A DNA stretch of 23,671 nt, from IMG/VR virus record IMGVR_UViG_3300038456_000067, positions 1 to 23,671 of that record, one strand, 5' to 3'. The translations under genes were made by a program, and so were the position numbers. Shown here in pieces: positions 6,801-22,449 of this stretch. Source of the DNA: a virus. Below the pieces are notes generated by a model. That model saw only the letters and a program-made list of their open reading frames with translations. It ran no database searches and was not told where the DNA came from. Numbering within the stretch: position 1 is the first letter of the stretch; every line of letters starts with the position of its first letter.

Positions 6801-9767
6801 TTCCGCACTGGGGTAGGCAATCTCGTAGGGGCTCTCTATCGGCGCACCAGTGCCTTCCTCACGGACGGCACGACCATCATCGGATGGCACCGGCATGATC
6901 TCGCCCCCTGGATCACGGGCGGCATGACCGTCGCCAGCCTGGGCGTGAACGCCTCCCCGAACGGCAACCTCGATGCGTTAGTTATAACAGTGGCGGATAA
7001 CAAGAATGATATGTGGGTCGAGAAGGCTACGCAGGTATTCGATGAAGATGATGTGCTCGCGGACGCCTTCTTCTTGGATCATGCCAAGGTGCCGGACACG
7101 CTCCTGGAAACCTCCGTGAATGGTGTGCTGGGCGTCCGCCTTACGGGGCTCTGGTATCAGGCCGGGACGGCCACGGTCACAATCGCCGGCCTCGATCTGG
7201 GTGACTTCGATCTCGATACACAGACCCCCCACAGCTCTGTCTTTGTGCCCTATGGCACCGGGATTGCCCCGAAGTACATCGACTACACGCAGCCGGGTGC
7301 AGGCGCCTATCTGTTCACGCCGGCTTTCCTGGCTGCAAATACAACGCAGACTATTGCGCGCAACGGCAGCGCGGTCGTGTTCGCTGGCTCAGGTGCAACT
7401 GCAACCACCACCACTTCGGTGACCACGACCTTCTCCGTCCAGTCTTTCGTGCCTGTGGCTTCGATCGACAGCAACGTGGATACGCAGAACACCAATGCGT
7501 TGATTGATTGGACGAACAACATTCTGGCCATCCCAGCGCATGATAGTAGCGGTATCCGGGAGTTCGGAGCGCTGACCGGCGTTGAGAACTATGCTCTGTT
7601 GATGGACACCATTGATAGTGGCAGCGGCACGACTTGGAAGAACGACATCGGCGCAATCCAGAATGGTGATGTCTATGTGCAGACCAAGGGCGGCGATTAC
7701 GGTGACCTTGCGAAGATCGACAACACGTTGACCCTGACCTATGATCAAGTAGGCAATGCCAATGAGACATCTGGGCCGTATGCTATCCCGTACGCAGCAA
7801 GCATGGCTATCTCAAGCGGTGGCGACTTCCTCTGCACCTCCAGTTCAACGCACGGCATTGGATTGAGCCAGACTTCGGATGGCAGTCCTATCGGGACCGC
7901 AAGTTGGGTCACGGCAACAGATTTCAGCAACGTGGCGCCTGACACCAACGACAATTTTTATCTGTTGAACAGTAGTGGCAACATCTATCAGCTTCTGACA
8001 CCGCAGCCTTTGAAGAAGCAGGGCATGATGCTTAATCTGCTCGGGCTGCTCCCGAGTGAAACCATTGATCCCACTTGGAACAATGGGCAAGGCACTTTTT
8101 CCGGCCTGGCGGTGGACGCGGCGGACGGCGGCCTTATCTTCTTTGCCAAGGGAAATTTCTCTGGGCTTTCCGCGTGGGCTTCTGGCACCACTTATGCCGA
8201 AGGCGCTATGATCTATGATGGCGCTGATTTCACAGATGACATCTATACCAGCAAGGTGGCCGGCAATGTCGGCAACCAGCCCGACCTCAGCCCAACCTAT
8301 TGGAACCGTACCACGCTCCAATACCTGGTGAAGGTGAATATCACGGAGTTGACCGGCCTTACAACCTCCCTTACAACCTCGGTCATCTCCGCTCAGATTG
8401 AACAACTCTTTGTCGCTTACTTTGGACGTGCAGCAGCCCCAGACGGCATGACTTATTGGGTAGCCGCTGCTCAGGGCGGCATGCCAATGGTGTCCATCGC
8501 CGCTTCCTTTGGGGTGCAGCCCGAGAGCCTTGCCCTCTATCCATTCCTGGTTAACCCCGGCGCCGCGACTACGCTCGAACAAGAAGCTTTCCTAAATGCC
8601 CTCTATGGCAACTCGTTTAATCGCCTGCCCACTACGGCTGGGGTAGCCTACTGGCTGCCGCAGCTCGTTGCGGCTGGCAGCGATATTAACGCCATTGGCG
8701 CCTTCGTTATGAACATCATTTCGGGGGCCACAGGAGCAGATGTGACTACGCTGGCCAATCGGGTCACAGTCGCAAGCTACTTCACCAACGGATTAACCCA
8801 ATATGGCTTGCCCTACAATGCAGCGGCCGCTGTTGTGTCATCCGCGGTGATTGCCGCCACTACTTCTGATCCCGCAACGGTGACGACCGAAGAGGCTGCT
8901 GTTCTCACCTACCTAAATGGGGTTGGCGCAACCGATGCGTTCGTGACCTCTTCGACTGCGGCCATCGTGCCATCAAACTTCACATTGGCTTGGGCAGTCC
9001 CGACGACTTTCATGCCCAATGGCACGAATGATCTGCTGTCGCAAAGCACAATCAATGGGTCATTCACTTTCGTGAGCCCGTGGATTTATTCCGCCTCCCT
9101 GCCCAATGCTACCGTAGTTGCAACCACGGTCAACACCGTCACGGGAGCCGTCACCACTACGCTCTGCCCTGGCCTTGATATGGAAAGTGCGGGTCAGGCC
9201 TACGACAGCGTTTCCAACAGCATCGTGTTCAACGGCAAATATGTGAGCACGACTTCAGGGGCGCCAGCTCCTCTCAATGCAACAGTCACTTGCGATGCCA
9301 CTTGGCTGCGCCTGTTCCTCGGTGGCACCTCTACCCTGCCTCCCAGCACGGTTCTGACCGGCCTCTACACTTTCGCTGGCTACATCCAAGCCGTGGTGGG
9401 TTACGGCTACACCTCGCAGGGCCAGATACTGCGCCCGATCAGCCCCGACGACACTGGGGCCAAGGCAGGCCCGGGGTTTGAAAAGACCCGGCGTAGTCAT
9501 GTTGTCGGGATGCTTTTGCATAACACAATAGGATTGCAGTTCGGCACCTCGTTCACGGGGAGCCAGCTTCAGCCGGCCGTGCTCAAAGGCGGCCAGGACG
9601 GCAATACGGGCACCCAATTGGCCCCCAACGAGATGTTCTCCGGTCATTATCGACGCCCATTGATTGATGACTATTCTTATGATAGTATGCTGGCCTGGCA
9701 GATCACGCGCCCCTACCCAGCCTCCGTGGTGAACATCGGCGCCTTCATCGAAACACAGGACATCTAA
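3819..9767 (+). CDS. Giant tail nozzle / tail tubular protein B-like protein with two DUF4214 domains
   Basis: 1982 residues, about two to three times the usual length of T7 gp12-type nozzle proteins (~800). It begins four bases after the adaptor stop. N-terminus (SFLAGEWSPFFQGRADKKEY, then NSFPLEEGTWVRRPGFRLIA) has the typical 'GE.SP...GR.D...Y......N......G....RPG' signature. Residues ~905-1025 (IAASALSEPLTPTS ... GMGLVFIQKFMHRVME ... GWHRHDL) are the conserved core. Residues ~1891-1982 give the usual end (LFxGH-like MFSGHYRRPL, YPASVVNIGAFIETQD). Extra length comes from DUF4214 at ~176-358 and ~1522-1705, a beta-propeller-like stretch at ~1208-1451 and carbohydrate-binding-like W..xxY..G segments at ~585-630 and ~1448-1506. 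It forms the distal tail tube; the additions are probably surface-exposed and host-contacting (inference). Confidence 0.8.
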   Translation: MARSSYLQTSFLAGEWSPFFQGRADKKEYKSAMNVCRNSFPLEEGTWVRRPGFRLIAPCQFGGAIFSQSRVYPVEFTEDQPIDLVLQDGRIGFLYGNAPLLTTGIPTLDGISTSNPALLTLATNAYNWQAGDEVMFLFDQTVPGIEGLPLRGGRLFLLGSSAAGTVSNFVTYASDVSQIEQLFVAYLGRSAAPVGMTYWLNAFLGGMPMNAIAASFCVQPETLGLFPYLTNPATVTTLQWGAFLNSVFENLFNHAENVGVDPTGFAYWMAQLAAVTNVNQLGLVVRNIISGAAGTDLTTMTNRTTVASFFTQQFAAYDVPYISAAITLSHAVITATTSTSGTVTTEEAAITAYITAVGGVLVAGSGYSFTLYDAFTGAPLDGSSLGLNGVAGITVGRLAIVNSPNTGGTLAQTRIVQNQDFALILNGADPPQVLTIANFAPVDTSYSWLGPDFPVATADVELVPLTMLDGPYLDPVVDSSNTPSVVNWTGGTISGPSIVPGDGTYAGGATPGTIVAVKQPLLADVTSTQYTFWTFTGHNTQANGDQVLATAPAGPICDQAGWAPADPTGSNSQATGTFTITAGFQAWVNKQAYMPGNCVSISTQAYRCLWPCASVQPGVTTGWAQYWVAIDSGYAVTGPAAALVGFQPTDIGRMVRLLSAPADYDPTVVYGDGALVMFDNQAYVHTGEGIASYDSTGAQLLLGTTMNHAGTAGVSPATFAAPQFGTLCFDQLDDAQTGTPANPPVSSTLKPGWAPAANAFNWIWGRIVSVTSSSVAVITLDPASAPMLAPLNNFQINTWRLGAFAEGSWPACGTFYEARFWLGGAIKNRFDTSQSDGWVPGNTVLNMSPTVVTGDLDTGYSNDGTVTDACGISYTLQSKDANDIRWFNPDKDGLLAGTISGEWMIAASALSEPLTPTSIQAKQVTHYGCADIEPRKTGMGLVFIQKFMHRVMEFLPQVFVGGFIAPHLNEAAKHLSTNTLVEMAYQEELAPLLWFRTGVGNLVGALYRRTSAFLTDGTTIIGWHRHDLAPWITGGMTVASLGVNASPNGNLDALVITVADNKNDMWVEKATQVFDEDDVLADAFFLDHAKVPDTLLETSVNGVLGVRLTGLWYQAGTATVTIAGLDLGDFDLDTQTPHSSVFVPYGTGIAPKYIDYTQPGAGAYLFTPAFLAANTTQTIARNGSAVVFAGSGATATTTTSVTTTFSVQSFVPVASIDSNVDTQNTNALIDWTNNILAIPAHDSSGIREFGALTGVENYALLMDTIDSGSGTTWKNDIGAIQNGDVYVQTKGGDYGDLAKIDNTLTLTYDQVGNANETSGPYAIPYAASMAISSGGDFLCTSSSTHGIGLSQTSDGSPIGTASWVTATDFSNVAPDTNDNFYLLNSSGNIYQLLTPQPLKKQGMMLNLLGLLPSETIDPTWNNGQGTFSGLAVDAADGGLIFFAKGNFSGLSAWASGTTYAEGAMIYDGADFTDDIYTSKVAGNVGNQPDLSPTYWNRTTLQYLVKVNITELTGLTTSLTTSVISAQIEQLFVAYFGRAAAPDGMTYWVAAAQGGMPMVSIAASFGVQPESLALYPFLVNPGAATTLEQEAFLNALYGNSFNRLPTTAGVAYWLPQLVAAGSDINAIGAFVMNIISGATGADVTTLANRVTVASYFTNGLTQYGLPYNAAAAVVSSAVIAATTSDPATVTTEEAAVLTYLNGVGATDAFVTSSTAAIVPSNFTLAWAVPTTFMPNGTNDLLSQSTINGSFTFVSPWIYSASLPNATVVATTVNTVTGAVTTTLCPGLDMESAGQAYDSVSNSIVFNGKYVSTTSGAPAPLNATVTCDATWLRLFLGGTSTLPPSTVLTGLYTFAGYIQAVVGYGYTSQGQILRPISPDDTGAKAGPGFEKTRRSHVVGMLLHNTIGLQFGTSFTGSQLQPAVLKGGQDGNTGTQLAPNEMFSGHYRRPLIDDYSYDSMLAWQITRPYPASVVNIGAFIETQDI
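4344..4893 (+). repeat. DUF4214 domain copy 1 (in-frame internal duplication)
   Basis: Encodes residues ~176-358 of the nozzle protein: QIEQLFVAYLGRSAAPVGMT followed by YWLNAF, the typical DUF4214 opening 'lY.ayfgR.aD..G..YW'. It inserts between native strands GSSAAGTVSNF and GSGYSFTLYDAFTG. The 5' 70 bases are nearly the same as those of copy 2 near 8390; the rest has diverged. Confidence 0.75.
8382..8935 (+). repeat. DUF4214 domain copy 2 (in-frame internal duplication)
   Basis: Encodes residues ~1522-1705 of the nozzle protein: QIEQLFVAYFGRAAAPDGMT then YW, GGMPM, ASFGVQPESLALYPFL, MNIISGATGADVTTLANR and VTTEEAAVLTYLNGVG. All align in order with copy 1. The canonical R-x-A-x-x-x-D-G form is kept here (AAAPDGMTYW), whereas copy 1 has V for D, so copy 2 looks closer to the family consensus. 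Confidence 0.75.
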
Positions 9768-9768
9768 T

Positions 9769-10272
9769 ATGGCTGGCGGGATTGGCGGTCTTATCGGCGG
9801 GATCGGCGGCGCCGTCTCGGATATGTACACTTCGGAAGCTGACAGCATCGAAGCTGCCGGCGACTGGACGGCCGCGCAATCCGATACGGCTGCAGCCAAC
9901 ATTGAGAACCAGAACATCAATCTGGAGAAGCTGTCCACGCAATTCCAAGACGTGCAGACGCAGCGTAAGATTTCGCAGACCGAAGGGGCAGCCACCGCGA
10001 TCGAAGGCTCCGGTAATGTCGGTGGTGGCTCGGCTGGCGACATCATGCGCGAGAGTGTCCAGCAAGGCGCCCTGGCCAAGACGATCATCAATACGCAGGG
10101 TGCCATGCAAGAGAATGCCTTCCAAGCGCAGGAGGACGCCTATACGGGTGAAGCCACCGCGCTGAAGGCCAAGAGCAACGCTGAAGACAAAATGGCGCAA
10201 GGCGCACAGGTCGCCGGGATGTTCTCGATCCTGGGCGGCGTAGCAGGGATGATGGGCGGGATGGGCGGCTAA
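9769..10272 (+). CDS. Internal virion protein (T7 gp14-like, ejection protein A)
   Basis: 167 residues. ATG one base after the nozzle stop, with AGGA about 10 bases upstream. The ends are Gly-rich and hydrophobic (GGIGGLIGGIGGAV near the start, MFSILGGVAGMMGGMGG at the end). The middle is Ala/Gln-rich helix (ENQNINLEKLSTQFQDVQTQ) with the pattern GSGNVGGGSAGDIMRESVQQG, as in small internal virion proteins of podoviruses. These are packed in the head core and ejected into the outer membrane at infection. The stop overlaps the next start by one base (TAATG), and two larger internal proteins follow, reproducing the T7 gp14-gp15-gp16 order. Direct homology to gp14 is not claimed; the role is by composition and order. 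Confidence 0.7.
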   Translation: MAGGIGGLIGGIGGAVSDMYTSEADSIEAAGDWTAAQSDTAAANIENQNINLEKLSTQFQDVQTQRKISQTEGAATAIEGSGNVGGGSAGDIMRESVQQGALAKTIINTQGAMQENAFQAQEDAYTGEATALKAKSNAEDKMAQGAQVAGMFSILGGVAGMMGGMGG

Positions 10273-12632
10273 TGCCAAAAATTCCAATTTTTGATGCAGG
10301 CTCCGGTAAACTGACGCCGCCCGAACAGGGCGCGCAGGCGTTGTCGCGCGCCGGCATGATGGAGGCTCGCTACGCTTCCGAGACTGCCAGCGGCATCAAG
10401 CAGGAAGGTGCCGAGATTGGCCGAGGCATCGCCTCGATCGGAGTTGGGATCAACGACTACACCGAGCACGCCCAGGCGCACACCGATGCTCTGGCCGAGA
10501 CGGATGCGGACGCTCAGATACTTTCGAACAAACTGAATGCCCAAGGAGCAATCACAGACGCCGCGACGGCCCACGACCCGGATGGCAATCCCATTCCTGA
10601 GGCCGAGAACCCCGGCTTCGGTGGTGATAAAGGCTTTCCGCCGGGCTCCCAGGTTCCTACACCGGAAGCTGTTGGAGCTAAAGCCAGTCAGACAATCAAT
10701 CAGCATCAAGCCGCGGGACAAAGTATCCTGGATCGGCTCGATGGCCAAGGTGTCAGCGACGCGGCGCAACAGCGCATCAATCGCAAAATCCAAGCGGCGA
10801 ATGGTGAACTCCAGCTCAAGGCAGCAGATCAGCACAGTAAAGCAGTAGCTGCCCATGTCATCAACCAGACAGATGAAAGCACCCGTGCGCTGTTGGGTGA
10901 TACCAATCAACATCCCGAGAATTTGGATGCCAATCTGGATCAAGGGCACGAGTTTTTTAAGACGTTGCGCGGTCACGCAAGCGGCGAATATGTTGGCCCG
11001 ATGGACGAAAAAGCCACGGAGATGGAAAGCGCCTTCCGAGAAGCAACCGTCACGGCTGCCGTGGAAGCGACTGCACGCGATGGTCAGCCCGGTGCCATTG
11101 ATCGCGCCACGAAACTCATGGATCAATATCCGAAGGATGTGAAGAACCGGGATGCAATGGTGACCCACATCACCGAGCTGGCCAAGCAAGCCACTACCAG
11201 CCAGAACGCTCAAGAAGAGATGACCAATCGGCACGAGAAAGAAACGATTGCCACCCAGACTGGTCAAGCGTGGAGCAACTATAAGCCCGGCATGGCCTTC
11301 CCTGCCGAGATTGAACATTCGATTGAAGGGATGAAGCATCCTCAGACGGTCGCGCAGATGAAGGCAGTCTGGGCCGCCAACGAACAAACCCGGCTGCATG
11401 GCAATCAAGTTGATCCCAATGTCGCTGAGACAAACATGAGCCCAATTCGACAAGAGCTGTTGGGCAACGGCGATCCTGATGTGGCTGTGGAGCATCTACG
11501 GCAGGCCTACGGCAACAAGCAAATCAACAAGGCTGATTATGAGGAAGGGATGCTGCTTCATAATGATCCTGCGACCAAAGGAACGGCCAAAGCCGGCGAT
11601 GACTGGCTGAAAACTGGTGGCGAAAGCCAGATTGACCGGGCGTACACTGTCTCTGATCCCCAGTCAAAATCCAACCTTGGTCAACAGTCGGTCCAGAAAT
11701 GGCGACAGGATTATGCTGCACGCGCAGCGGCCGACCCGGCTCACGCACGAGACTTGCTGGACCCATCCAAGCCGGGCAACATGGTATCGCCGGAAGGCTT
11801 GGCCAAATATCGCACGACAGCCGCGCAGAGCCAGGCTTACGATAAGCAGCAGACAGACCTCGACAAGGCTGCTGACAAGGCCCGTGCGGCTGCGCCCATA
11901 GCGCCCGCCTTGGGGGTGCCCGCGAAGGCTGTAGCACCCGCTGCGCCAGCCAAGGATAGTCTCGGGCGCATTGGGGGGCCAACTGCGGCGCCCATCCAGT
12001 TTAGCCATGGCGATCTGTTGGCGAAGGGCATCACTACGCCAGAAGCGGCCCTCGCCTACGCGGTCAAGACTTATCAGCCTGGCACCAGGATCACTGACAC
12101 GACGACTGGAAAACAATATATCGTTCCAGGTACTGCAGCTCCAGCGGCTGCGGCACCGGCTGCGCCTGTCCAGAAGATGAACTATGAACCCCCGACTACC
12201 AATGCGGCACCCGCGCATGCCGCTTCCGTTCGAAACAATAATCCTGGGGCTCAGTGGCCGAACGCTCTGGCCAAAGAGTACGGCGCCACCGGGCATCAGA
12301 ACCTGGCCGATGGCAACAAGATTGCAACCTTCCCAACTCCGATGCACGGCGCCGCCGCTAACATGGCGTTGTTCGACACCAAATACGTTGGGCACACGAT
12401 AGAGCAAATCCAAAAGACCTGGAGTGGTCAGCATCGTGCAAGCCTGCCAGGCTATGCCCCTGGAACGCGCGTCACGGAAGAGATGGCGCATGATCCCAAA
12501 TTCATGATCCCCTTCATGAAGGCAATGGCAGAAGCAGAGGCTCCGCGTGGGTCCTCGGTTATGTCGGATGCTCAGTGGAAACAGGCATTTGACTTTTATC
12601 AGAGCAAGTCGTCCAGCAATACGGGGACGTAA
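10272..12632 (+). CDS. Internal virion protein B with C-terminal RNNNPG cell-wall-type domain
   Basis: 786 residues, start overlapping the preceding stop (TAATG). Residues ~1-540 are mostly polar Ala/Gln/Glu/Lys-rich helix without membrane segments, as expected for an ejection channel or core protein like T7 gp15. A Pro/Ala linker follows (~540-580 and ~620-640, e.g. APAAAAPAAPV). The C-terminus from residue ~653 starts VRNNNPGAQWPN and continues GHQNLADGNKIATFPTPMHG with AAANMALF and TIEQIQKTWSG. That is the signature of RNNNPGN domains, which recur in phage virion proteins linked to peptidoglycan degradation (recalled from structural protein P5-like and muramidase-like families). It may open the murein during DNA entry. 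Catalytic residues cannot be assigned with confidence. Confidence 0.7.
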   Translation: MPKIPIFDAGSGKLTPPEQGAQALSRAGMMEARYASETASGIKQEGAEIGRGIASIGVGINDYTEHAQAHTDALAETDADAQILSNKLNAQGAITDAATAHDPDGNPIPEAENPGFGGDKGFPPGSQVPTPEAVGAKASQTINQHQAAGQSILDRLDGQGVSDAAQQRINRKIQAANGELQLKAADQHSKAVAAHVINQTDESTRALLGDTNQHPENLDANLDQGHEFFKTLRGHASGEYVGPMDEKATEMESAFREATVTAAVEATARDGQPGAIDRATKLMDQYPKDVKNRDAMVTHITELAKQATTSQNAQEEMTNRHEKETIATQTGQAWSNYKPGMAFPAEIEHSIEGMKHPQTVAQMKAVWAANEQTRLHGNQVDPNVAETNMSPIRQELLGNGDPDVAVEHLRQAYGNKQINKADYEEGMLLHNDPATKGTAKAGDDWLKTGGESQIDRAYTVSDPQSKSNLGQQSVQKWRQDYAARAAADPAHARDLLDPSKPGNMVSPEGLAKYRTTAAQSQAYDKQQTDLDKAADKARAAAPIAPALGVPAKAVAPAAPAKDSLGRIGGPTAAPIQFSHGDLLAKGITTPEAALAYAVKTYQPGTRITDTTTGKQYIVPGTAAPAAAAPAAPVQKMNYEPPTTNAAPAHAASVRNNNPGAQWPNALAKEYGATGHQNLADGNKIATFPTPMHGAAANMALFDTKYVGHTIEQIQKTWSGQHRASLPGYAPGTRVTEEMAHDPKFMIPFMKAMAEAEAPRGSSVMSDAQWKQAFDFYQSKSSSNTGT

Positions 12633-15600
12633 TGGCAGCCATTAAAGACATCAATCCGGCAGCCGGTCCTGATCCCGAAACGCAATTGAAAGCTGGGATG
12701 GCTGATAATGCCAACCCTGGCCTAGAGGGTGGCATCCCGGAAGGGACGCAACCGCCTGAAGGCCAGGTTCAGCCAGACATCAGCCCGAAGCAGGCTGCAG
12801 ATAAGCCGGCCGAAGACCTGTTCTCTAAGTTCCAGGCTGCGCCAGCCGCGCCTCCCGAAGACCTGTTCTCTAAGTTCCAGGCTGCCCCTGGCCCGTCAAT
12901 CGACCCAAGCCCGCAAGCGTTTGAAGACCGGGTTAACCAAGGGAAGGCCGTAGTTTCGGGCTGGGAAAAAGAACTCAAGGAATGGTCTGGCAAACAGCTT
13001 TTCAGCGGTGACACCTATCACGCGATGGCTGGCGGCCTGGGCGTCCTTGGCGCCACGGGCCTGGGCGTTGTCAATTCGATCTTGAGTGGTGCCACACTGC
13101 CCCATGATGTCGATGCCGGCCGCGTCACTTCAATGGATGAACTGATCAGCCGCTCCCGCGACCTGGCGATGCTCGGTGGCGTGACGGCCGATATACGGTT
13201 CGGTGGCGTGAAACCACTGGTCGACGCCGGCAATGGTCAGACTGCCAGGCTTGGGGATGATCCTGCTACAGGAGCGGTGAAGGGTGATCTGGTGGGCGAA
13301 TATCCGCCGAAGCCCGCAGACTTCACCAACGCTGCTGCCTCCGTGGCCAAGACGCTGCCCGAGAAGATCACCAGCGCTGCGATGCGCGATGGCGAGCATG
13401 TCGCAATGGGCACCAACCATGCCGAGGCCGCGCAGGCCCTGGAAGATGCCGGGCACAATGGCTTTGGCGGCGAGCGTGGTTATACCACCACGCAGCGGGC
13501 CTTCGTGCCAGAAGAAGAAGCACAAGGAATTGCCAAAGCCCAAAGCCAGACGACAGCGGAGGCTCCGAAATCAGAAGATATTACAATGCACAAGCCCGAG
13601 ACGGTGCAGGGCAACATCGAACAGAACCTCCGTGACAAGTGGCAGACCGAAGGCCTGCATCCCGCCGAAGTAGCACTCGATGCCAAACACGATACTTTCC
13701 TGGCCCACGATCTGGGCGCCGCAGCCGGCAGTGCGCCGACGATGCCGCCGCTGGTCTCCCCAATGGTGCAGCCGCTATCCCCCGTTGGCAAGCTGCTGCA
13801 AGTCGGCCGTGTCGGATTGGATACCCTGCTTGACATCGGCCACGACATTCAGAAAGCACTTGATCCCATGTCCGTGGGTTCACGGCCGGCGCAGGCGATC
13901 GCTACCGATGTGGCCAACACTGAGCGCCGCATTGCCTGGGATCATGCGCGTACCGACAAGTACATCTCTGACAACTTCCCGCCCGAGAGCCGCGAGAGGA
14001 TGTGGAATGCTATAGACGAACAGAGTGTAGCCATGCAGCGCGGTGAGAGCACTGAGCATCAAGGCCTGGCCACGCTGGAGCCCCATGAACAAGAACTCGT
14101 CGCTGCATTGCAGGAACACTCCAAGCGGACTTGGGACATCGCCCGCGACATTGGCATGGTCAAGGGCGAAGGGCTACCCTCCTATGGCCCCCGCATCATG
14201 ATCAATATGCTGGCCGATGTCGAAAGCAAAGTCCCGACAGCATTGGGGCGCAAGATTTCCACGCGCACCCAGAACATGATCACGCGCAAATATCTGACCG
14301 CCGAGGAAACCGAAGCTGCCGGCAAGAATATTACCGAAGGTGGGCAACTGATCCGCGATGTTCGCACCCTGCCATTGGTGACGGCCAGGATGGAACGCGC
14401 CATCATGTGGCATAAGGCGATCACGAAGATCGAGGACATCGGCGCCACCACCGGTAACAACACCGTATGGTCTGGCCCCCTGGCTGAAGGCATGGACCGC
14501 AAAGATTGGTTCACTCGACCGGAGCCAGCGTTCCAAACCTGGCAGCCTATGTTAGATCGTGGGCCAGATGGCACCCCGCGCCTTGAAGGCAACATGATGA
14601 AGATTGCCAAGAACGAAGATGGCGAAGAACTCTATGAACGGGTGCCACGCTACATCCACAAGGATTTCGAAGGCCCGCTTGATGCCATCATCCAGAAGCC
14701 GTACGGCACCGCGATGTCTGGCCTGATGAACCTCAAAGGCAAGACCATGAGCCTGGTCATGTACAGCCCTGTCATCCATAACCTGGTGGAGTTCAGCCGC
14801 GCGTTGCCGGCCGTCAATGGCAACCCAATCAAGCTGGTGCGGCTGTACTTTGATGGCAATGCGTTGAAGAACAATGCCGGCGCAATGCGCGAAGCAATCG
14901 ATGGCGGCCTGGTGCCGATCGGCAAACGCTTTTTCAACCAGGACATGTTCGCCACGATCGAGAGCCCAACTCTCACTCCCGGCCGCTCCTGGACTTCCCA
15001 GATCGCGGGGTTCTTCGGGGATATGTATAGCGAGGGAGCCGGCACCACCGCTCGCAGTGGAATAGATCGCGCGGGCGACTTCTGGCACAACACACTTTTG
15101 TGGGATCGCGTGGCCGATCTTCAGGCCGGTCTCTACAAGAACTTCCTGGACGAGTTCGGTGCCATCCCTGGCATTGATCGGTCCTCGGCAGTCCGGGCCT
15201 CGGCCCACTTCGCCAACCGCTTCGCTGGCTCCTTGCCGGTCGAAGCCATGAGCCGCGGCGCACGAACAGTTGCCAACATTGGCCTCTTCTCTCGTACCTT
15301 CACCGCGGGCAACTACGCCCTGTTCAAGGATGCTATACTAGGGTTGCCAGGAAATGTGGCTGCCCAGGTGGAGCGCGCCGTTCCCGCGGATGTGTTCCGC
15401 ACCCTCAACACGCAAGCCAAGCGCGTGGCCTTCCACGCCGTCGCCACGGACGTGGCACTGAAGTATGCCACGGGCTCAATCTTGGCCAGTGGGTTGGCGG
15501 TGATGGCCTCCGATCAGGATTGGGGCGGTGCCCTATCCGAAGTCTATCATGGCTACGTCAAACGCTTCCAAACGGCCTTTGAGAAAGGTGTTGAGCATCC

Positions 15601-16345
15601 TCTCAGCATCCTGGCTCACCCGTTCGACACGGTGAACTCTCTCACACCAATGTCCGAGAATGAACCGGGCAAGGAAGATCGGATCAAATTGCCTTGGCGT
15701 ATGCCAGACGGCGCCGCGATGTATGCCACCAACCCGGCCGGCAAGATCGCTGATCAATATCTTGGCTCGATCTTTCATCCAATCGACACCTTACACAATA
15801 AGTTGAGCACCTTCGTGCGGCCGGTGTGGGATGTATTGGCGAACGACAAGGGCTTCGGCCGTAAGATATTCGATCCGGAGTACACCGACAACGCCGCCCG
15901 CTTTCAGTCGGCTCTCGACGTAGCCAAGATATTCGCAGAGGCTCAGGCGCCTACCGGACAGATGGCCTCGTTTGGTCGCCTGGCCACGGGCGAGGGCGAT
16001 AAGCAACTCAATGCGCTGCAAACGGTTGGGCCGTTCTTCGGCACCAACGTCTCTCAAGGTGCGCCAGGGGGCGAGCACAAAGCGGTGCTCTATAAAGCGC
16101 AGGAGGCCGAGAAGTTCAGAATTGATCAGGCCATGCCCGACATCAAGAAGGCCGTGCAGGATGGTGACAACATCAAGGCCCGAGAGATCATGACTGGCCT
16201 CGGCATGTCGAACCGATACCAAAACTCGATCATCCATTACCAGAGCAACCCCGGCCGTGTGTCGAGCAGCGCTGAACGTGATCTGATGCGCTACGGCACA
16301 CCAGAAGAGAAAGAGCGCTTCCAGGCGTTCAAGGCAGGGCGCTAA
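12632..16345 (+). CDS. Large internal virion protein C (T7 gp16 position), ejection protein
   Basis: 1237 residues, start overlapping the preceding stop (TAATG). The first 90 residues are Pro/Gln-rich and disordered, with an exact duplicated peptide EDLFSKFQAAP at 61-71 and 76-86. Residues ~420-540 are charged helix (ERRIAWDHARTDKYISDNFP). The C-terminal third (LFSRTFTAGNYALFKDAILG, then DVALKYATGSILASGLAVMA) contains an amphipathic or membrane-active stretch, then IKLPWRMPDGAAMYATNPAG and HPIDTLHNKLSTFVRPVWDV. The latter resembles domains found at the ends of very large phage polyvalent or internal proteins (recalled, family name uncertain). It probably completes the trans-envelope DNA conduit. 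No lytic transglycosylase glutamate motif is seen here, unlike T7 gp16; the cell-wall domain instead sits in the preceding protein. Confidence 0.7.
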   Translation: MAAIKDINPAAGPDPETQLKAGMADNANPGLEGGIPEGTQPPEGQVQPDISPKQAADKPAEDLFSKFQAAPAAPPEDLFSKFQAAPGPSIDPSPQAFEDRVNQGKAVVSGWEKELKEWSGKQLFSGDTYHAMAGGLGVLGATGLGVVNSILSGATLPHDVDAGRVTSMDELISRSRDLAMLGGVTADIRFGGVKPLVDAGNGQTARLGDDPATGAVKGDLVGEYPPKPADFTNAAASVAKTLPEKITSAAMRDGEHVAMGTNHAEAAQALEDAGHNGFGGERGYTTTQRAFVPEEEAQGIAKAQSQTTAEAPKSEDITMHKPETVQGNIEQNLRDKWQTEGLHPAEVALDAKHDTFLAHDLGAAAGSAPTMPPLVSPMVQPLSPVGKLLQVGRVGLDTLLDIGHDIQKALDPMSVGSRPAQAIATDVANTERRIAWDHARTDKYISDNFPPESRERMWNAIDEQSVAMQRGESTEHQGLATLEPHEQELVAALQEHSKRTWDIARDIGMVKGEGLPSYGPRIMINMLADVESKVPTALGRKISTRTQNMITRKYLTAEETEAAGKNITEGGQLIRDVRTLPLVTARMERAIMWHKAITKIEDIGATTGNNTVWSGPLAEGMDRKDWFTRPEPAFQTWQPMLDRGPDGTPRLEGNMMKIAKNEDGEELYERVPRYIHKDFEGPLDAIIQKPYGTAMSGLMNLKGKTMSLVMYSPVIHNLVEFSRALPAVNGNPIKLVRLYFDGNALKNNAGAMREAIDGGLVPIGKRFFNQDMFATIESPTLTPGRSWTSQIAGFFGDMYSEGAGTTARSGIDRAGDFWHNTLLWDRVADLQAGLYKNFLDEFGAIPGIDRSSAVRASAHFANRFAGSLPVEAMSRGARTVANIGLFSRTFTAGNYALFKDAILGLPGNVAAQVERAVPADVFRTLNTQAKRVAFHAVATDVALKYATGSILASGLAVMASDQDWGGALSEVYHGYVKRFQTAFEKGVEHPLSILAHPFDTVNSLTPMSENEPGKEDRIKLPWRMPDGAAMYATNPAGKIADQYLGSIFHPIDTLHNKLSTFVRPVWDVLANDKGFGRKIFDPEYTDNAARFQSALDVAKIFAEAQAPTGQMASFGRLATGEGDKQLNALQTVGPFFGTNVSQGAPGGEHKAVLYKAQEAEKFRIDQAMPDIKKAVQDGDNIKAREIMTGLGMSNRYQNSIIHYQSNPGRVSSSAERDLMRYGTPEEKERFQAFKAGR

Positions 16346-16911
16346 TGAGCCCGCCCGGCATCAAACTCCAGGGCATCCGCGCGCCCATTCCCCCAGGCTA
16401 TATTCTCGGCCGGACTTCTCCAGGCACGGGTGTCGTCGAACTTATCAAAATCGCTGACCTCGGCAAAGCCCTGGTGGTAGCTGGACAAGGTTCAACCCTT
16501 GGCGTAGCGGGCAGAGCTGCGATCCCAGTGGTGCCGTCGAAGTCCTACGTCGAATATCTTGGCTTCCAGGCGCCGGGTCCGTTCACCGCCACCCAACAGT
16601 TTACGCTGGCAATGGCGCCGCGAGCTGTACAGTTCCCCAGCATCTCCACTGTTGATCTGAGCAGCGCGACTTGCACCAGTGCGCCTGCGGCCGATACCAG
16701 TCTGGTATTGACCGACAACCTTGCCAACTACCTGTCCCACGGCACCAACATCGTGTGTACCGTCAGCTTCGCTGCCAGGGCCAAGGTTGGAACTCTGGCG
16801 TGGGGAACACCACCACTGGAGCCGATTGGCACCATTCTCTACATCGTCATGATCACCTCTGATGCGTCCTTTGCCGGCGTCCAGTGCCTGTTCGCAGGAG
16901 ACGCACAATGA
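16345..16911 (+). CDS. Probable tail-tip/fibre adaptor protein with PPGY-LGRTSPG motif
   Basis: 188 residues, start overlapping the preceding stop (TAATG). Residues 13-35 (IRAPIPPGYILGRTSPGTGV followed by VELIKI) form a short N-terminal peptide I have seen at the start of many phage tail-associated proteins, usually as 'PPG.llGR...G.G..e.i', perhaps a docking segment. The rest is a beta-rich domain (FTATQQFTLAMAPRAVQFPS; TIVCTVSFAARAKVGTLAWG-like strands), ending in GVQCLFAGDAQ. Its stop overlaps the start of the repeat protein downstream (ATGA). Likely part of the host-contact cassette. Ligand unknown. Confidence 0.6.
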   Translation: MSPPGIKLQGIRAPIPPGYILGRTSPGTGVVELIKIADLGKALVVAGQGSTLGVAGRAAIPVVPSKSYVEYLGFQAPGPFTATQQFTLAMAPRAVQFPSISTVDLSSATCTSAPAADTSLVLTDNLANYLSHGTNIVCTVSFAARAKVGTLAWGTPPLEPIGTILYIVMITSDASFAGVQCLFAGDAQ

Positions 16912-18641
16912 CGTGGGCAGTCACAGATCAGGGCACAGTCACAGGAACATCTGGCGCAACACTTGTCTGCACCATCCCAACTACTATCGCGGTTGGCTCC
17001 TTGGTTGTCGTTGCTGCTGCTGTTCAAGGCTCAGCGACGATAGCAGATAGCCAAAGCAACACATATACTTTGATCACTGATGTTTTTACAGGCGGTGGCA
17101 CAAATTTTGAGGCCCTGTATTATTCAGTCCTTACGACAGCTTTGGTGGGTGGCACCGACACGATTACCCTGACAAAAACCCCATCTGGTGCAGCAGCCGC
17201 TCTGTCAGTATTGTCAGCTACAGGCAACAGTTCTACCCCTCTCGATACCTCCGTAACGGCAACAACTTCTGGGTCGTCGTCGTCTGGAATGGGAACCCTC
17301 ACCTCTGGGACCCCGTCCGTCGCTGGTGAATTGTTTGTCGCATTTGCTGGCGCAACGGACGTGTTCAACTCGTTGGCTTCGGATACAACTCACAGTTGGA
17401 CTACGCCTCCCTTTGCCCTGCAAACAACCGTCGCCCCCCACAGTGTAGGGGCCTATCAAGTTAACGCGGGGACTGGAACACAAATCTATGCACCCACCGC
17501 GATGGATGCTGGCCAGTGGGGTATAATTATTGCTGGCTTCAAACCTGGTACAACTAATGCCACCGGCACCGTGGCTATGGCATTCGCCAAGCCGAAGATT
17601 GCTGCCACCGCGCAAGAAGGAGATGCTCACGGCACTGTGAGTATGACCTTCGCCAAGCCGAAGATTGCTGCCACCGCGCAAGAAGGAGATGCTCACGGCA
17701 CCGTGGCTATGGCATTCGCCAAGCCAGCGATTGCTGCCACCGCGCAAGAAGGAGATGCTCACGGCACCGTGGCTATGGCATTCGCCAAGCCAGCGATTGC
17801 TGCCACCGCGCAAGAAGGAGATGCTCACGGCACTGTGAGTATGGCCTTCGCCAAGCCAGCGATTGCTGCCACCGCGCAAGAAGGAGATGCTCACGGCACC
17901 GTCACGATGACGTTTGCCAAGCCTCACATCACAGCCGCTGGCTACAATCCAATCCACGGCACAGTGACGATGACGTTTGCCAAGCCAGTCCTCACTGTGC
18001 ATGGCACCGAGGGGGCGATCCTAGCCACCGTTCACATGGCCTTCGCTGGCCCCGTGATAACAGCCTCCTCGACCGAAGGAGATGCTCACGGCACTGTGAG
18101 TATGGCCTTCGCCAAGCCTCACATCACAGCGGCCGGCTACAATCCAATCCACGGCACAGTGACGATGACGTTCGCCAAACCTGCAATCACAATTGCTGGT
18201 ATTGAAGGGGATGTCACCGGCGCAGTGACGATGGCGTTTGCTAAGCCAGTCCTCACTGTGCATGGCACCGAGGGGGCGATCCTAGCCACCGTTCACATGG
18301 CCTTCGCTGGCCCCGTGATAACAGCCTCCTCGACCGAAGGAGATGCTCACGGCACCGTCACGATGACGTTTGCCAAGCCTCACATCACAGCCGCTGGCTA
18401 CAATCCAATCCACGGCACAGTGACGATGACGTTCGCTAAGCCGTTGCTGGCCGTCATCAATACTCTCAATGTAACCGGAACTGTGACGCTGACATTCGCC
18501 AAAGCCAAGATCGACGCGGGCAACCTCACACACGGGACTGTAACCCTGACTTTCACCCATCCGAAATTCGCCAGCCTTGGTAGTCAATTGGCTGCCTCTG
18601 GCAATCCAAGCTACTACTCATGGTGGTTCCTTGGTCCTTGA
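16908..18641 (+). CDS. Tail-associated protein with sixteen ~22-residue C-terminal repeats
   Basis: 577 residues from the ATG at 16908, preceded by AGGAG at a 7-base spacing and overlapping the previous stop (ATGA). An upstream GTG at 16884 is rejected as poorer. The N-terminal ~218 residues are a beta domain (TADSQSNTYTLI-like; VGSLVVVAAAVQGSATIADS) of the kind found in phage tail and cell-surface proteins. From residue 220 the chain is built of sixteen imperfect repeats, consensus GTVtMaFAKPxIxAxxxEGDAH. Each would form one or two strands of a beta-repeat, probably trimeric, shaft. Variants fall into types, e.g. AATAQEGDAH, AAGYNPIH, VHGTEGAIL and ASSTEGDAH. It is likely a tail fibre or needle shaft protein. 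The repeat count is directly visible; the shaft model is inference. Confidence 0.7.
   Translation: MTWAVTDQGTVTGTSGATLVCTIPTTIAVGSLVVVAAAVQGSATIADSQSNTYTLITDVFTGGGTNFEALYYSVLTTALVGGTDTITLTKTPSGAAAALSVLSATGNSSTPLDTSVTATTSGSSSSGMGTLTSGTPSVAGELFVAFAGATDVFNSLASDTTHSWTTPPFALQTTVAPHSVGAYQVNAGTGTQIYAPTAMDAGQWGIIIAGFKPGTTNATGTVAMAFAKPKIAATAQEGDAHGTVSMTFAKPKIAATAQEGDAHGTVAMAFAKPAIAATAQEGDAHGTVAMAFAKPAIAATAQEGDAHGTVSMAFAKPAIAATAQEGDAHGTVTMTFAKPHITAAGYNPIHGTVTMTFAKPVLTVHGTEGAILATVHMAFAGPVITASSTEGDAHGTVSMAFAKPHITAAGYNPIHGTVTMTFAKPAITIAGIEGDVTGAVTMAFAKPVLTVHGTEGAILATVHMAFAGPVITASSTEGDAHGTVTMTFAKPHITAAGYNPIHGTVTMTFAKPLLAVINTLNVTGTVTLTFAKAKIDAGNLTHGTVTLTFTHPKFASLGSQLAASGNPSYYSWWFLGP
17982..18094 (+). repeat. 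Higher-order duplication in repeat array, copy 1
   Basis: This 113-base stretch is identical to 18243-18355, exactly 261 bases (four repeat units) downstream. Flanking bases are similar but not identical, which marks the edges of a recent duplication or gene-conversion tract within the array. Confidence 0.9.
18243..18355 (+). repeat. Higher-order duplication in repeat array, copy 2
   Basis: Identical 113-base partner of 17982-18094. It encodes the KPVLTVHGTEGAILATVHMA and following GPVITASSTEGDAHG segment a second time. Confidence 0.9.
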
Positions 18642-18689: not shown

Positions 18690-19145
18690 ATGGCTAATTC
18701 ACCAATGTGTTCGATGGCCGCTGCAGAAGCCGCCCTGACATCCCTCTGTGCCGAACTGAACGCCAATGGCGGACACGATGGCGTCCTCAAAGTGTTCTCC
18801 GGGGCACTGCCGGCAACCTGCGAAACGGCGGACCCATCAGGCGCGTTATCAGTAGGCTGCACTTTCGCCTCGACCGCCTTCACGATCACCGATGGTGGTT
18901 CGAACGGCTTGGCGACAGGAACGGCCGGCACAATCGCCGCCGATACCAACATCTCCTCGGGCGGCACCGCGCTCTGCTTCCGCGCCTACAACTACAATGG
19001 CACGACCTATGTCTGCCATTTGCAGGGCACGGTTGGCACCTCCGGCTGCGACATGAACCTGAACACCACAACCCTCGTCACGGCCGCGACGTTCACCATC
19101 ACTTCATTCGTTGTCACCCTGGCCGATGGTTCGGGCGCCGACTAA
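18690..19145 (+). CDS. Conserved phage protein of unknown function, tail cassette
   Basis: 151 residues. The ATG follows GGGAG at a 6-base spacing. The sequence follows a layout I recall from many small phage proteins: a short N-terminal helix, then LKVFSGALPATCETADPSGA with LSVGCTF, then a C-terminal beta stretch where TALCFRAYNYNGTTYVCHLQ is followed by GTVGTSGCDMNLNTT and FTITSFVVTLADG. Those relatives usually read 'iy.G..P......p.G.ll.t' and 'a.wfR.....G....dGtVGt.gaDl.l' and are encoded near tail fibre genes. Cysteines (at least five) are unusually frequent compared with neighbours. Function unknown; a virion protein at the tail tip is a plausible inference. Confidence 0.65.
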   Translation: MANSPMCSMAAAEAALTSLCAELNANGGHDGVLKVFSGALPATCETADPSGALSVGCTFASTAFTITDGGSNGLATGTAGTIAADTNISSGGTALCFRAYNYNGTTYVCHLQGTVGTSGCDMNLNTTTLVTAATFTITSFVVTLADGSGAD

Positions 19146-20446: not shown

Positions 20447-21576
20447 TTGAGCACCTTTCGCATGGCATGTGCGGCATCCTTGTCCCACGTCAACCACTCG
20501 CGTGTGGCATAGGGATGCTTCTCGTCCAGATACACCGGCCAAGAGGCAGTGAAACCATATTTCTCGTTGAGGAACCAGAGAGCCTGGCACGGCCGACTGG
20601 CGGGCACGCGCAGACCAACGTGGGCGTATTCATTGTAGCCGATCAGGCTGCCATTGCCAACGGCCGGAACGAGGTCGCCGCGAGGCATGTACGCATGATA
20701 ATGGCCTAAGATAACCGTGTCCACCCGGTACCCCGACGCCGCCTCAGCGCGGAGAAGCTTAAAGACACCTCGCGCAATAGGCCCAATCGCGCCGATAATT
20801 CCGTCGCCCCCGTGGCTTGCCAGAGCATCGCCGTGCGTGCAGAGGAAATTATGCCCATAGACAGTGAAACGGGCATCCACTTCGTTTGGAATGAAGAAGA
20901 CAACACGGGGGTCAGAACGGAAATAACTCTCAAGTTGGCAGTAGAGGTTCCATTCATAGGACGTGTAGACGCGGTCTTTGGCGCGCGGCTTGAGGGTCGT
21001 CCTGCCATGATTTCCCACTACGCAAGGAACAAAGACCTTGCCAAATTTATCCGCCATTGTTTTCAGGGCGGTTATCAGTTGCTCTTGAACATCCAGCAAC
21101 GCAACTTGGACTGGACCATCGTTAGTTTCCCGGAGGTCCTCATGGATCGCCCCCGTAATCATATCCCCACCCAGGCATATGATGATGCCTGGATAGTTTG
21201 GCTTTACCATATGGTGGAGGGTCAAGTCAATAGTGCTGTCAACTAGTCGATGGATACGCTCCCTAGCAATCTTTCGATTGAACACATTCTTGCCCCCAAC
21301 CTGGGACTTGTCCACCTTCTCCCCCATGTGCCAATCGCTCCAATTGGTCATGGGCACCCCTACTGTATGCTGCCCTATGTGCTTTGGATTAAGCCATTTC
21401 GGAGGATCAGGGGTCATCGCCTTGAGATCATAGATTTCCGTCCTGATCTTCTCAGCGGCATCATTGTCTTTACGGAGCAACTTGATCTCTCGCAAGGCAT
21501 TGGCTAGTTTGGTATGCTCCTTGCGGTTTTCCTCCATTGCATCAGCGAGGTAGTCCTTATCGGTTTTCTTTTGCAT
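20443..21576 (-). CDS. Calcineurin-like metallophosphoesterase
   Basis: 377 residues from the ATG at 21576, chosen because AGAGAGG sits 9 bases upstream; an ATG at 21582 is only 3 bases from it. Residues ~1-55 are a charged coiled-coil-like helix (EENRKEHTKLANALREIKLL). The catalytic domain has every two-metal motif in order: D81-W-H83, GGD138, GNH190, TH248GD and GH292YH294. Family members cleave phosphomono- or diesters; phage versions are often annotated as nucleases or 2',3'-cyclic phosphodiesterases. Length exceeds minimal members because of the coiled-coil and an insert around 200-240. Its start overlaps the repeat-protein stop by 20 bases and its stop overlaps the DUF4406 start by 4. 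Substrate cannot be told from sequence. A nucleic-acid role is inferred from the operon. Confidence 0.8.
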   Translation of the reverse strand: MQKKTDKDYLADAMEENRKEHTKLANALREIKLLRKDNDAAEKIRTEIYDLKAMTPDPPKWLNPKHIGQHTVGVPMTNWSDWHMGEKVDKSQVGGKNVFNRKIARERIHRLVDSTIDLTLHHMVKPNYPGIIICLGGDMITGAIHEDLRETNDGPVQVALLDVQEQLITALKTMADKFGKVFVPCVVGNHGRTTLKPRAKDRVYTSYEWNLYCQLESYFRSDPRVVFFIPNEVDARFTVYGHNFLCTHGDALASHGGDGIIGAIGPIARGVFKLLRAEAASGYRVDTVILGHYHAYMPRGDLVPAVGNGSLIGYNEYAHVGLRVPASRPCQALWFLNEKYGFTASWPVYLDEKHPYATREWLTWDKDAAHAMRKVLK

Positions 21577-22018
21577 GTGCATATGCCTCTCTAGCTTTGA
21601 AGTTAATCCACTCACGATTAGCAGCGCCATAACGCCTACTGCTTTGCCGATGACTTTCTCTACCTTTCGAGGAAGTAGCAGCCCTATGTTGACTTGCCAT
21701 TCCTTTCGGCGTAGCCCGATAACGGCGCATAGTGGCTATGCCCTTCAAAGAACTATTATAGCGTCGAAGACAAGCTGCCCGTTTTACTGATGCTTGATAG
21801 CGCCGCTGGCTCGCAATTCCTTTTGGGGACGTATGCGCCCGCCGCTGGGTCGCAATTCCTTTCGGAGACCCCTGATACCGCCGATGAATAAGCAAACCTG
21901 CTGGGGAAGCATAAAAACGAAGACACTGCTCTCGGTTCGCCCAATACCATTTTTTCGCCCTAGCATTTCGATGCAACCGTTCTGCCTCTGTCATGTCCTT
22001 AACCAGCTTATACGACAT
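21557..22018 (-). CDS. Basic protein of seven tandem 13-residue repeats, unknown function
   Basis: 153 residues from the ATG at 22018, which shares one base with the resolvase stop (TGATG) and has GGAGAG upstream. A longer frame to 22060 lacks such a site. The N-terminus is helical and charged (TEAERLHRNARAKKWYWANR). Residues ~34-124 consist of seven 13-residue units, consensus R-Y-x-x-S-P-K-G-I-A-x-x-R. Examples are RYQGSPKGIATQR, RAHTSPKGIASQR and RYNSSLKGIATMR. The C-terminus again becomes polar helix (ANREWINFKAREAYAHAKEN). The whole is strongly basic, so nucleic-acid binding is plausible. No zinc ligands or HNH motif are visible. I recall similar Ser-Lys-Gly repeats in phage hypotheticals but cannot name a family. 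Position between a resolvase and a phosphoesterase suggests a DNA transaction role (inference). Confidence 0.7.
   Translation of the reverse strand: MSYKLVKDMTEAERLHRNARAKKWYWANREQCLRFYASPAGLLIHRRYQGSPKGIATQRRAHTSPKGIASQRRYQASVKRAACLRRYNSSLKGIATMRRYRATPKGMASQHRAATSSKGRESHRQSSRRYGAANREWINFKAREAYAHAKENR
21647..21919 (-). repeat. Seven tandem 39-bp coding repeats (13-residue units)
   Basis: Seven in-frame units encode the 13-residue periodicity at residues 34-124 of the basic protein. Units are divergent at the nucleotide level; the best conserved bases encode the S-x-K-G core, e.g. CAATTCCTTTTGGGGA and CAATTCCTTTCGGAGA on the plus strand near 21817 and 21852. This argues for an old repeat maintained by selection at the protein level. 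Confidence 0.75.
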
Positions 22019-22449
22019 CACGCTCTCTCCGCATTCTGCTCTGCATACTTCAGCAACCAAAACGCATCCGCTTCGTGTTCATTCGAACCCTGATACCCGA
22101 GCCGCTGCGCCGCCCTGACCATCATGTCTTTCGAGGCCCGGCCGTCTCGCGTGGCGAACTTCTTGATCGTCGCCACAGCAACATCAATTACTGGCAGCCC
22201 TGCCAATGAAGCAGCAGCCTCGATCACACCGGCACTGCCCCAGCCACAGCGCGTGGCATCTCGCCCCCTGGCGAATGGTGTCTCGTAGACTACCAGATCG
22301 AGCCCACCACTCAACATATCAGGGAGCCAATCCAGGAGCTGCCCCTGCCGATGGGCGCGCGGGCCGGTGAAGAGTTTAGAGCCAACACCATAGGGGCTAT
22401 TGCAGGCCCAGCCGATCGTTGCTCCGAGATCGAATGCGATGATGTTCAT
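22018..22449 (-). CDS. RuvC-like Holliday-junction resolvase (phage type)
   Basis: 143 residues from the ATG at 22449, which overlaps the stop of the upstream gene by 4 bases (ATGA). An upstream extension to 22467 is rejected. The first strand MNIIAFDLGATIGWA carries the first acidic residue D7 in the DxGxxxGWA RuvC pattern. VVYETPFARG carries E56; ATIKKFATRDGRASKDMM is the 'K.....G...Ka' helix region; NEHEADAFWLLKYA supplies the last acids (E126/D128). These four acidic positions bind the two metals of RNase H-fold resolvases. It probably cuts branched replication or recombination intermediates before packaging. The length, about 140-150 residues, is typical. Confidence 0.8.
   Translation of the reverse strand: MNIIAFDLGATIGWACNSPYGVGSKLFTGPRAHRQGQLLDWLPDMLSGGLDLVVYETPFARGRDATRCGWGSAGVIEAAASLAGLPVIDVAVATIKKFATRDGRASKDMMVRAAQRLGYQGSNEHEADAFWLLKYAEQNAERA

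What the first reader, a model, noticed from the sequence alone, without database searches (positions are those of the whole stretch)
17565..18617. Expanded 16-unit repeat shaft with recent 261-base higher-order duplication
The tail protein's C-terminal half is almost wholly a 66-bp in-frame repeat. Units 1-5 are near-identical, units 6-14 form mixed types, and 113 identical bases recur exactly four units (261 bp) apart. This indicates ongoing recombination that changes shaft length in whole units, a simple way to tune host-contact distance or vary receptor surfaces. The strict GTVxMxFAKP strand motif with a variable EGDAH/YNPIH/TEGAIL turn suggests turns are the variable, exposed part.
Basis: partly seen in the sequence, partly recalled or inferred. 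Interest (0 to 1): 0.65.

Follow-up and report, generated by a model that had tools for sequence, protein, structure and literature searches.

The report
Phage fibre with length-variable repeat shaft
An uncultured short-tailed phage carries a probable host-adhesion fibre gene whose second half is 16 copies of a 22-residue repeat, some duplicated very recently, and related genes in other phages have 3 to 14 copies, so the shaft length can change in whole steps.

Summary
Gene 16908-18641 (577 aa) holds 16 in-frame units of 19-22 aa at 17565-18599. There is a 113-bp exact repeat 261 bp (four units) apart. Units 1-5 show four-gamete evidence of recombination inside units.

Searches with the repeat itself found no relative. 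Using the downstream gene (18690-19145) as bait did. In IMG/VR phages the gene directly before its homologue is the same kind of protein: a variable beta-rich N-terminal part, tandem ~22-aa units, and in many a conserved 35-aa C-terminus. Unit numbers are 3, 3, 3, 8, 8, 9, 11, 13, 14 and 16 here. They differ (8-14) among relatives whose neighbour gene is 87-92% identical, and are equal in closer pairs. Only this window has long exact repeats (113 bp against 8-20 bp), so recent expansion is peculiar to this lineage.

Best reading: a virion fibre/adhesin in a three-gene cassette. Its third gene resembles a chain in the solved tail-fibre model of phage 7-7-1, probably its 'garland' protein. The cassette lies at the tail-fibre position here but in the capsid gene block of other phages, so 'tail' is likely, not proven. 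No tip domain follows the shaft. No data show host-distance tuning, diversifying turns or ongoing variation.

The parts
16345..16911 (+). first gene of the cassette (188 aa, 'o188'): N-terminal IPPGYILGRTSPGTG motif and a C-terminal beta domain
   Evidence: homologues directly precede the repeat gene in L023, L113, L101-L105 and L110; window vs L110 42%, E 2e-29
16908..18641 (+). repeat fibre/adhesin gene, 577 aa
   Evidence: ORF; follows gp14/15/16-like internal virion genes as the tail-fibre gene does in MW202898
16908..17564 (+). N-terminal domain, 219 aa, predicted beta-sandwich(es)
   Evidence: AF2 with 10 relatives: pLDDT 70.5, pTM 0.74; related domains in L101, L105, L110 and Send513 gp32; best PDB Z 7.4, in the range of a common arrangement
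17565..18599 (+). 16 tandem units of 19-22 aa (GTVxMxFAKPxI...)
17565..17894 (+). units 1-5, near-identical; four-gamete evidence of recombination inside units
17663..17767 (+). 105-bp block repeated exactly at +66 (17729-17833)
17982..18094 (+). 113-bp block, first copy (second copy 18243-18355, +261)
18243..18355 (+). 113-bp block, second copy
17880..17977 (+). 98-bp block, first copy (second copy 18336-18433, +456)
18336..18433 (+). 98-bp block, second copy
18534..18638 (+). last unit plus C-terminal tail, 35 aa (...ASGNPSYYSWWFLGP)
   Evidence: ungapped score against the 35-aa C-termini of L101, L102, L103, L105 and L106: 31.8; best of 93,926 background 35-mers 18.6; best of 2,739 background C-termini 4.0
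18690..19145 (+). third gene of the cassette (151 aa, 'o151'), phrog_3758 virion structural protein
   Evidence: phrog_3758 E 8.5e-21; 42-61% identical homologues follow repeat genes in relatives; related to solved 'Structural protein' chains 44nx_B and, through L102, 9rkv_A

Best explanation
The gene encodes a virion fibre/adhesin. An N-terminal beta-sandwich, one of several exchangeable modules, is carried on an extended shaft of 16 two-strand units that ends in a conserved 35-aa C-terminus. It is encoded in a cassette with an upstream small beta protein (16345-16911) and a downstream phrog_3758 protein (18690-19145), which probably binds the fibre as the garland protein does in phage 7-7-1. 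The conserved codons of each unit act as homology for unequal crossing-over or gene conversion, which changes the shaft in whole units without shifting the frame. In this lineage such events are recent. Shown: the array, its recombination, unit-number differences between relatives, the conserved C-terminus and the cassette. Inferred: fibre/adhesin role, shaft fold, contact with the o151 protein, and that length matters for host contact.
For: Array and exact repeats; four-gamete pattern. Synonymous codon diversity at invariant residues (V3: four codons, F7: two) shows selection on the first strand. Position after gp14/15/16-like genes, as the tail-fibre gene in MW202898. Same cassette order in L023/L112, L113, L101-L105 and L110. 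Unit numbers 3-16. C-terminal 35-mer homology. Exchangeable N-terminal modules: two F5/8 type C domains in L023, a beta-propeller in L103, beta-sandwich in others. Isolated mycobacteriophages have a phrog_3758 gene two genes after a 'minor tail protein' with similar-looking repeats. The o151 homologue of L102 matches 9rkv_A, 141 aa, 2.7e-6; 9RKV is the tail-fibre model of phage 7-7-1, whose small garland protein contacts the fibres (PMC12796354).
Against: No relative of the full protein in GenBank phages, PDB, Pfam, PHROGs or NCBIfam. Homology of the units themselves to the L101-L106 units is only moderate (hhalign P 0.0026, column-shuffled controls 0.18-0.7; plain HMM searches do not find it). 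No tip domain. In L101, L102 and L110 the cassette lies between scaffold and major capsid protein, which would fit a capsid fibre. The single-sequence shaft model is weak (pLDDT 51-76 over the units) and AF2 is known to invent beta-solenoids for repeats (PMC11795689). That 9rkv_A is the garland protein is inferred from its size.
Confidence: 0.62

Rival explanations
1. A capsid (head) fibre or decorating adhesin rather than a tail fibre: it projects from the head and gives weak binding to host surface or surroundings.
For: In L101, L102 and L110 the repeat gene lies between scaffold (phrog_206) and major capsid protein (phrog_247), just before the phrog_3758 gene, which PHROGs classes as head and packaging. 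Precedent: phiCbK gp76, the candidate head filament, was expanded by tandem duplication (PMC3556154).
Against: In the window and in L023 and L113 the cassette follows the gp16-like gene, the tail-fibre place. In mycobacteriophages it is among minor tail genes. The o151 relative 9rkv_A is in a tail-fibre model.
Confidence: 0.22
2. The array length is an assembly artefact: short reads collapsed or duplicated identical units.
For: The window is a metagenomic virus contig; units 3 and 4 are identical and exact repeats reach 113 bp. Further identical units would be easy to lose, so the count may be too low.
Against: The longest exact repeat (113 bp) is shorter than usual short reads. Units 6-16 differ enough to be ordered. 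The mosaic of types, with different offsets, is not a simple duplication of one block. Relatives without long exact repeats also carry 8-14 units.
Confidence: 0.12
3. Neutral drift of a tolerant repeat: unit number changes by recombination and has no function in host contact as long as strand 1 and the C-terminus are kept.
For: Unit numbers 3-16 are all tolerated. Turns show no sign of diversifying selection. Number is equal in the closest pairs.
Against: Purifying selection on strand 1 (pN/pS 0.24) and an intact frame through 16 units show the shaft is functional, though not that its length matters.
Confidence: 0.4

Closest known systems
Minor tail proteins Charlie gp22 and Send513 gp32 with phrog_3758 neighbours gp24/gp34 (mycobacteriophages)
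   Same: ~22-residue beta-type repeats in a structural protein encoded two genes before a phrog_3758 protein; Send513 gp32 also has domains related to the window's N-terminal domain (E 1.7e-4, unfiltered blastp)
   Different: repeats N-terminal to the domain; unit sequences not significantly alike; size constant among isolates
Phage 7-7-1 long tail fibre gp015 and garland protein gp014 (9RKV, PMC12796354)
   Same: the o151 homologue of L102 matches a 141-aa chain of that tail-fibre model; fibre with a beta-helical middle part
   Different: gp015 has an N-terminal anchor, a beta-helix and C-terminal jelly rolls; here the beta-sandwich is N-terminal; no sequence match of the repeat protein to the PDB
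phiCbK gp76 (candidate head filament) and Tweety gp54
   Same: phage genes enlarged by in-frame tandem duplication (PMC3556154, PMC2884959)
   Different: glycine-rich or tetrapeptide repeats of another type
T7-like tail fibre gp17
   Same: gene position after the gp14/15/16-like genes
   Different: no T7 gp17 N-terminal domain found by Pfam
Adenovirus-type triple beta-spiral shaft
   Same: alternating hydrophobic residues, then a turn with P or G, then a second strand and a loop (own knowledge)
   Different: 21-22 residues per unit instead of about 15; trimer not testable here

Membership tests
phage tail fibre | encoded with tail genes at the fibre position | tested here: met
   follows gp14/15/16-like genes; same place as the annotated tail fibre in MW202898
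phage tail fibre | known N-terminal virion-attachment domain (such as T7 gp17 N-terminus) | tested here: not met
   no Pfam, PHROGs or NCBIfam match
phage tail fibre | C-terminal receptor-binding tip beyond the shaft | tested here: not met
   only 13 residues follow unit 16
phage tail fibre | present in the virion, trimeric | not testable with these tools
   no proteomics or structure for this phage
repeat-fibre cassette described here (o188 - repeat protein - o151) | homologue of 18690-19145 (phrog_3758) directly downstream | tested here: met
   42-61% identity to the o151 homologues of eleven relatives, whose preceding gene ends in tandem repeats
repeat-fibre cassette described here (o188 - repeat protein - o151) | homologue of 16345-16911 directly upstream | tested here: met
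repeat-fibre cassette described here (o188 - repeat protein - o151) | conserved 35-aa C-terminus | tested here: met
   none of 93,926 background 35-mers reaches the window's score
repeat-fibre cassette described here (o188 - repeat protein - o151) | homologous ~22-aa units | tested here: inconclusive
   to L023 z 6.2, 0 of 5,000 shuffles reach it; hhalign P 2e-4 to L111-113 and 0.003 to L101-106, in register; plain HMM not significant
carbohydrate-binding module (N-terminal domain) | CBM or lectin fold | tested here: inconclusive
   beta-sandwich model; best Z 7.4 to the beta-sandwich part of a GH86 enzyme, with lectin and CBM rows at 5-7, below the trust level
triple beta-spiral shaft | ~15-residue repeat, trimer | tested here: not met
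   unit length 19-22; trimer not testable

The most novel reading that the evidence does not exclude
An undescribed adhesin cassette that moves between phages of different build and is inserted either in the tail-fibre or in the capsid gene block. Its polarity is inverted: an exchangeable binding module at the N-terminus, a shaft whose unit number is adjustable, and a conserved C-terminal anchor held by a garland-like partner.
Probability: 0.3. Interest if true: 0.6.

Novelty: new variant of a known kind. Interest (0 to 1): 0.42.

Why it matters
Length of phage fibres is thought to matter for reaching receptors through surface layers, but natural series of one shaft with different unit numbers are rarely to hand. 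This cassette gives such a series (3 to 16 units with the same kind of partner gene). It also offers a handle on three uncharacterised phage protein types that standard family libraries leave unnamed or without a defined function, and a link from phrog_3758 to a solved fibre-associated protein.

Tried and rejected
Direct searches with the whole protein, the N-terminus, the repeat profile and degenerate motif patterns gave nothing in GenBank phages, IMG/VR or 84,980 genomes. The 13 IMG/VR pattern hits have one match each and no array: chance. The gp16-like protein found no relatives. Weak Pfam/PHROGs hits (GAF_PdtaS, Nmad2, Carmo_coat_C, phrog_9223) are below cut-off and lie in repeats: rejected. 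The muramidase-like match in MW202785 is not syntenic. Foldseek for the single-sequence model gave nothing at E <= 0.001 in PDB or BFVD. An open minus-strand frame over the array (17214-18002) is a by-product of the stop-free repeat and was rejected as a gene. Literature searches for repeat-number variation in tail fibres gave no direct precedent for this repeat. The identity of 44nx could not be found.

Full report
OBSERVATION. The gene at 16908-18641 encodes 577 aa. From 17565 to 18599 it consists of 16 in-frame units of 19-22 aa. The types run A A A A A B C D B' E C D B F G H. B copies 6 and 13 and D copies 8 and 12 are identical in DNA; C copies 7 and 11 differ at 3 bases. The 113-bp exact repeat at 261 bp is real. 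A 105-bp block at 66 bp and a 98-bp block at 456 bp add to it. TRF and the motif count leave no room for chance. Unit 9 joins the start of unit 5 (44 identical bases, offset 261) to the end of a B unit. Among units 1-5, haplotypes at codons 2-6 and 10-11 occur in all four combinations. So exchange happens inside units, across the conserved TTCGCCAAGCC tract, as well as of whole units.

SELECTION INSIDE UNITS. Codons 1-10 have pN/pS 0.24, codons 11-15 0.74, codons 16-22 0.77. V3 and F7 are invariant although written with four and two codons. The first strand is therefore kept by selection; the rest is loosely constrained. Between the two nearly identical relatives L102 and L104 the repeat part has pN/pS 0.19, and the turns are not enriched for amino-acid change.

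SURROUNDINGS. The record is a linear IMG/VR fragment of 23,671 bp. It carries a major head protein end, tail tubular A and B, a gp14-like protein, two further large internal-virion-type proteins at 10272-16345, the cassette, then replication genes on the other strand (DNA polymerase A). The order matches the podophage MW202898, where the tail fibre follows the gp16-like gene.

FINDING RELATIVES. Direct searches failed. A tail-tubular-B alignment found kin podophages. In one, L023, the genes are o188 homologue, a 360-aa protein ending in three units (GTVAMTFGALTLSASGND...), then the o151 homologue. The unit similarity is beyond 5,000 shuffles (z 6.2). An alignment of the two o151 proteins then found 27 loci. 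In eleven of them (L101-L107, L110-L113; L112 is the same contig as L023) the gene directly upstream of o151 ends in tandem units.

UNIT NUMBERS. L105 14, L106 13, L101 11, L103 9, L102 and L104 8, L112, L113 and L111 3, window 16 (hand segmentation, checked against the translations). The o151 proteins of L102-L106 are 87-99% identical to each other. So the number differs between relatives, and is equal in the 99% pair. The longest exact repeat is 8-20 bp in all relatives but 113 bp here: recent expansion is specific to the window's lineage. In the mycobacteriophage isolates the possibly related protein keeps 404-405 or 593 aa.

IS IT THE SAME FAMILY? Synteny on both sides and the C-terminal 35-mer (window score 31.8, best of 93,926 background 35-mers 18.6) say yes. 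Profile comparison of units alone is in register but moderate (P 2.3e-4 to L111-113, 0.0026 to L101-106; shuffled columns 0.18-0.7), and plain HMM searches do not connect them. I call the protein homologous on the strength of C-terminus and neighbours.

FUNCTION. N-terminal parts are exchanged: two F5/8 type C domains in L023, an NHL/SGL-type propeller in L103, and beta-sandwich domains in others, of which the window's is predicted with pTM 0.74. The fold resembles lectin and CBM sandwiches only at a level common by chance (Z up to 7.4). The o151 homologue in L102 matches the solved chains 44nx_B and 9rkv_A; the window-L023 profile matches 44nx_B at 3.3e-9. 9RKV is the tail-fibre model of Agrobacterium phage 7-7-1; its components are long fibre, short fibre and the small dimeric garland protein that holds fibres. 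A 141-aa chain can only be the garland protein by size; this is an inference. Together this suggests a fibre plus a garland-like partner.

TAIL OR HEAD. In L101, L102 and L110 the cassette lies between scaffold and major capsid protein. In mycobacteriophages Charlie and Send513 a phrog_3758 gene follows minor tail genes. The location on the particle is therefore open; the window's own context favours the tail.

SHAFT FOLD. The single-sequence AF2 model gives two strands per unit at pLDDT about 51-76. AF2 is known to produce beta-solenoids for arbitrary repeats (PMC11795689), so the model is weak evidence. Pattern V3-M5-F7, P10, I12, A14 fits an amphipathic two-strand unit (sequence).

LIMITS. 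Reads were not available, so standing variation and assembly collapse of identical units were not tested. The count of 16 is a lower bound if identical units were lost.

Noticed in passing
3819-9767: The tail-tubular-B-like protein is very long (1982 aa); DUF4214 is found at residues 1585-1617 (E 5e-12), and a similar stretch (SQIEQLFVAYLGRSAAPVGMTYW) lies near residue 180, so two DUF4214-like insertions are likely.
   Followed up: partly
L102:2222-7767, L101, L110: The repeat gene and its phrog_3758 neighbour lie between head scaffolding and major capsid protein genes in these phages.
   Followed up: partly
L128 (Charlie gp22) and L129 (Send513 gp32): Mycobacteriophage minor tail proteins carry ~22-aa repeats of similar look and, in Send513, domains like the window's N-terminal domain.
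   Followed up: partly
2068-2679: A gene before tail tubular A is related to a gene at the fibre locus of L026 (12924-13736), which ends in short repeats (FSGEALLMPPQAAASVYK).
   Followed up: no
21557-22060 (minus strand): A basic protein with ~13-aa repeats (KGIATQRRY...), seen by TRF as a 39-bp period at 21795-21883.
   Followed up: no
10272-12632: C-terminus (residues 652-772) is 42% identical to a protein of phage MW202785 that lies outside its tail block; it looks like a lytic domain inside an internal virion protein.
   Followed up: no
L027, six-frame + strand near 850: A further phage protein with GSIALAPATPTILITEAEDF-type repeats at a kin locus.
   Followed up: no
L102 versus L104: Repeat part has higher synonymous divergence (0.155) than the N-terminal part (0.061) of the same gene, perhaps from recombination.
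   Followed up: no
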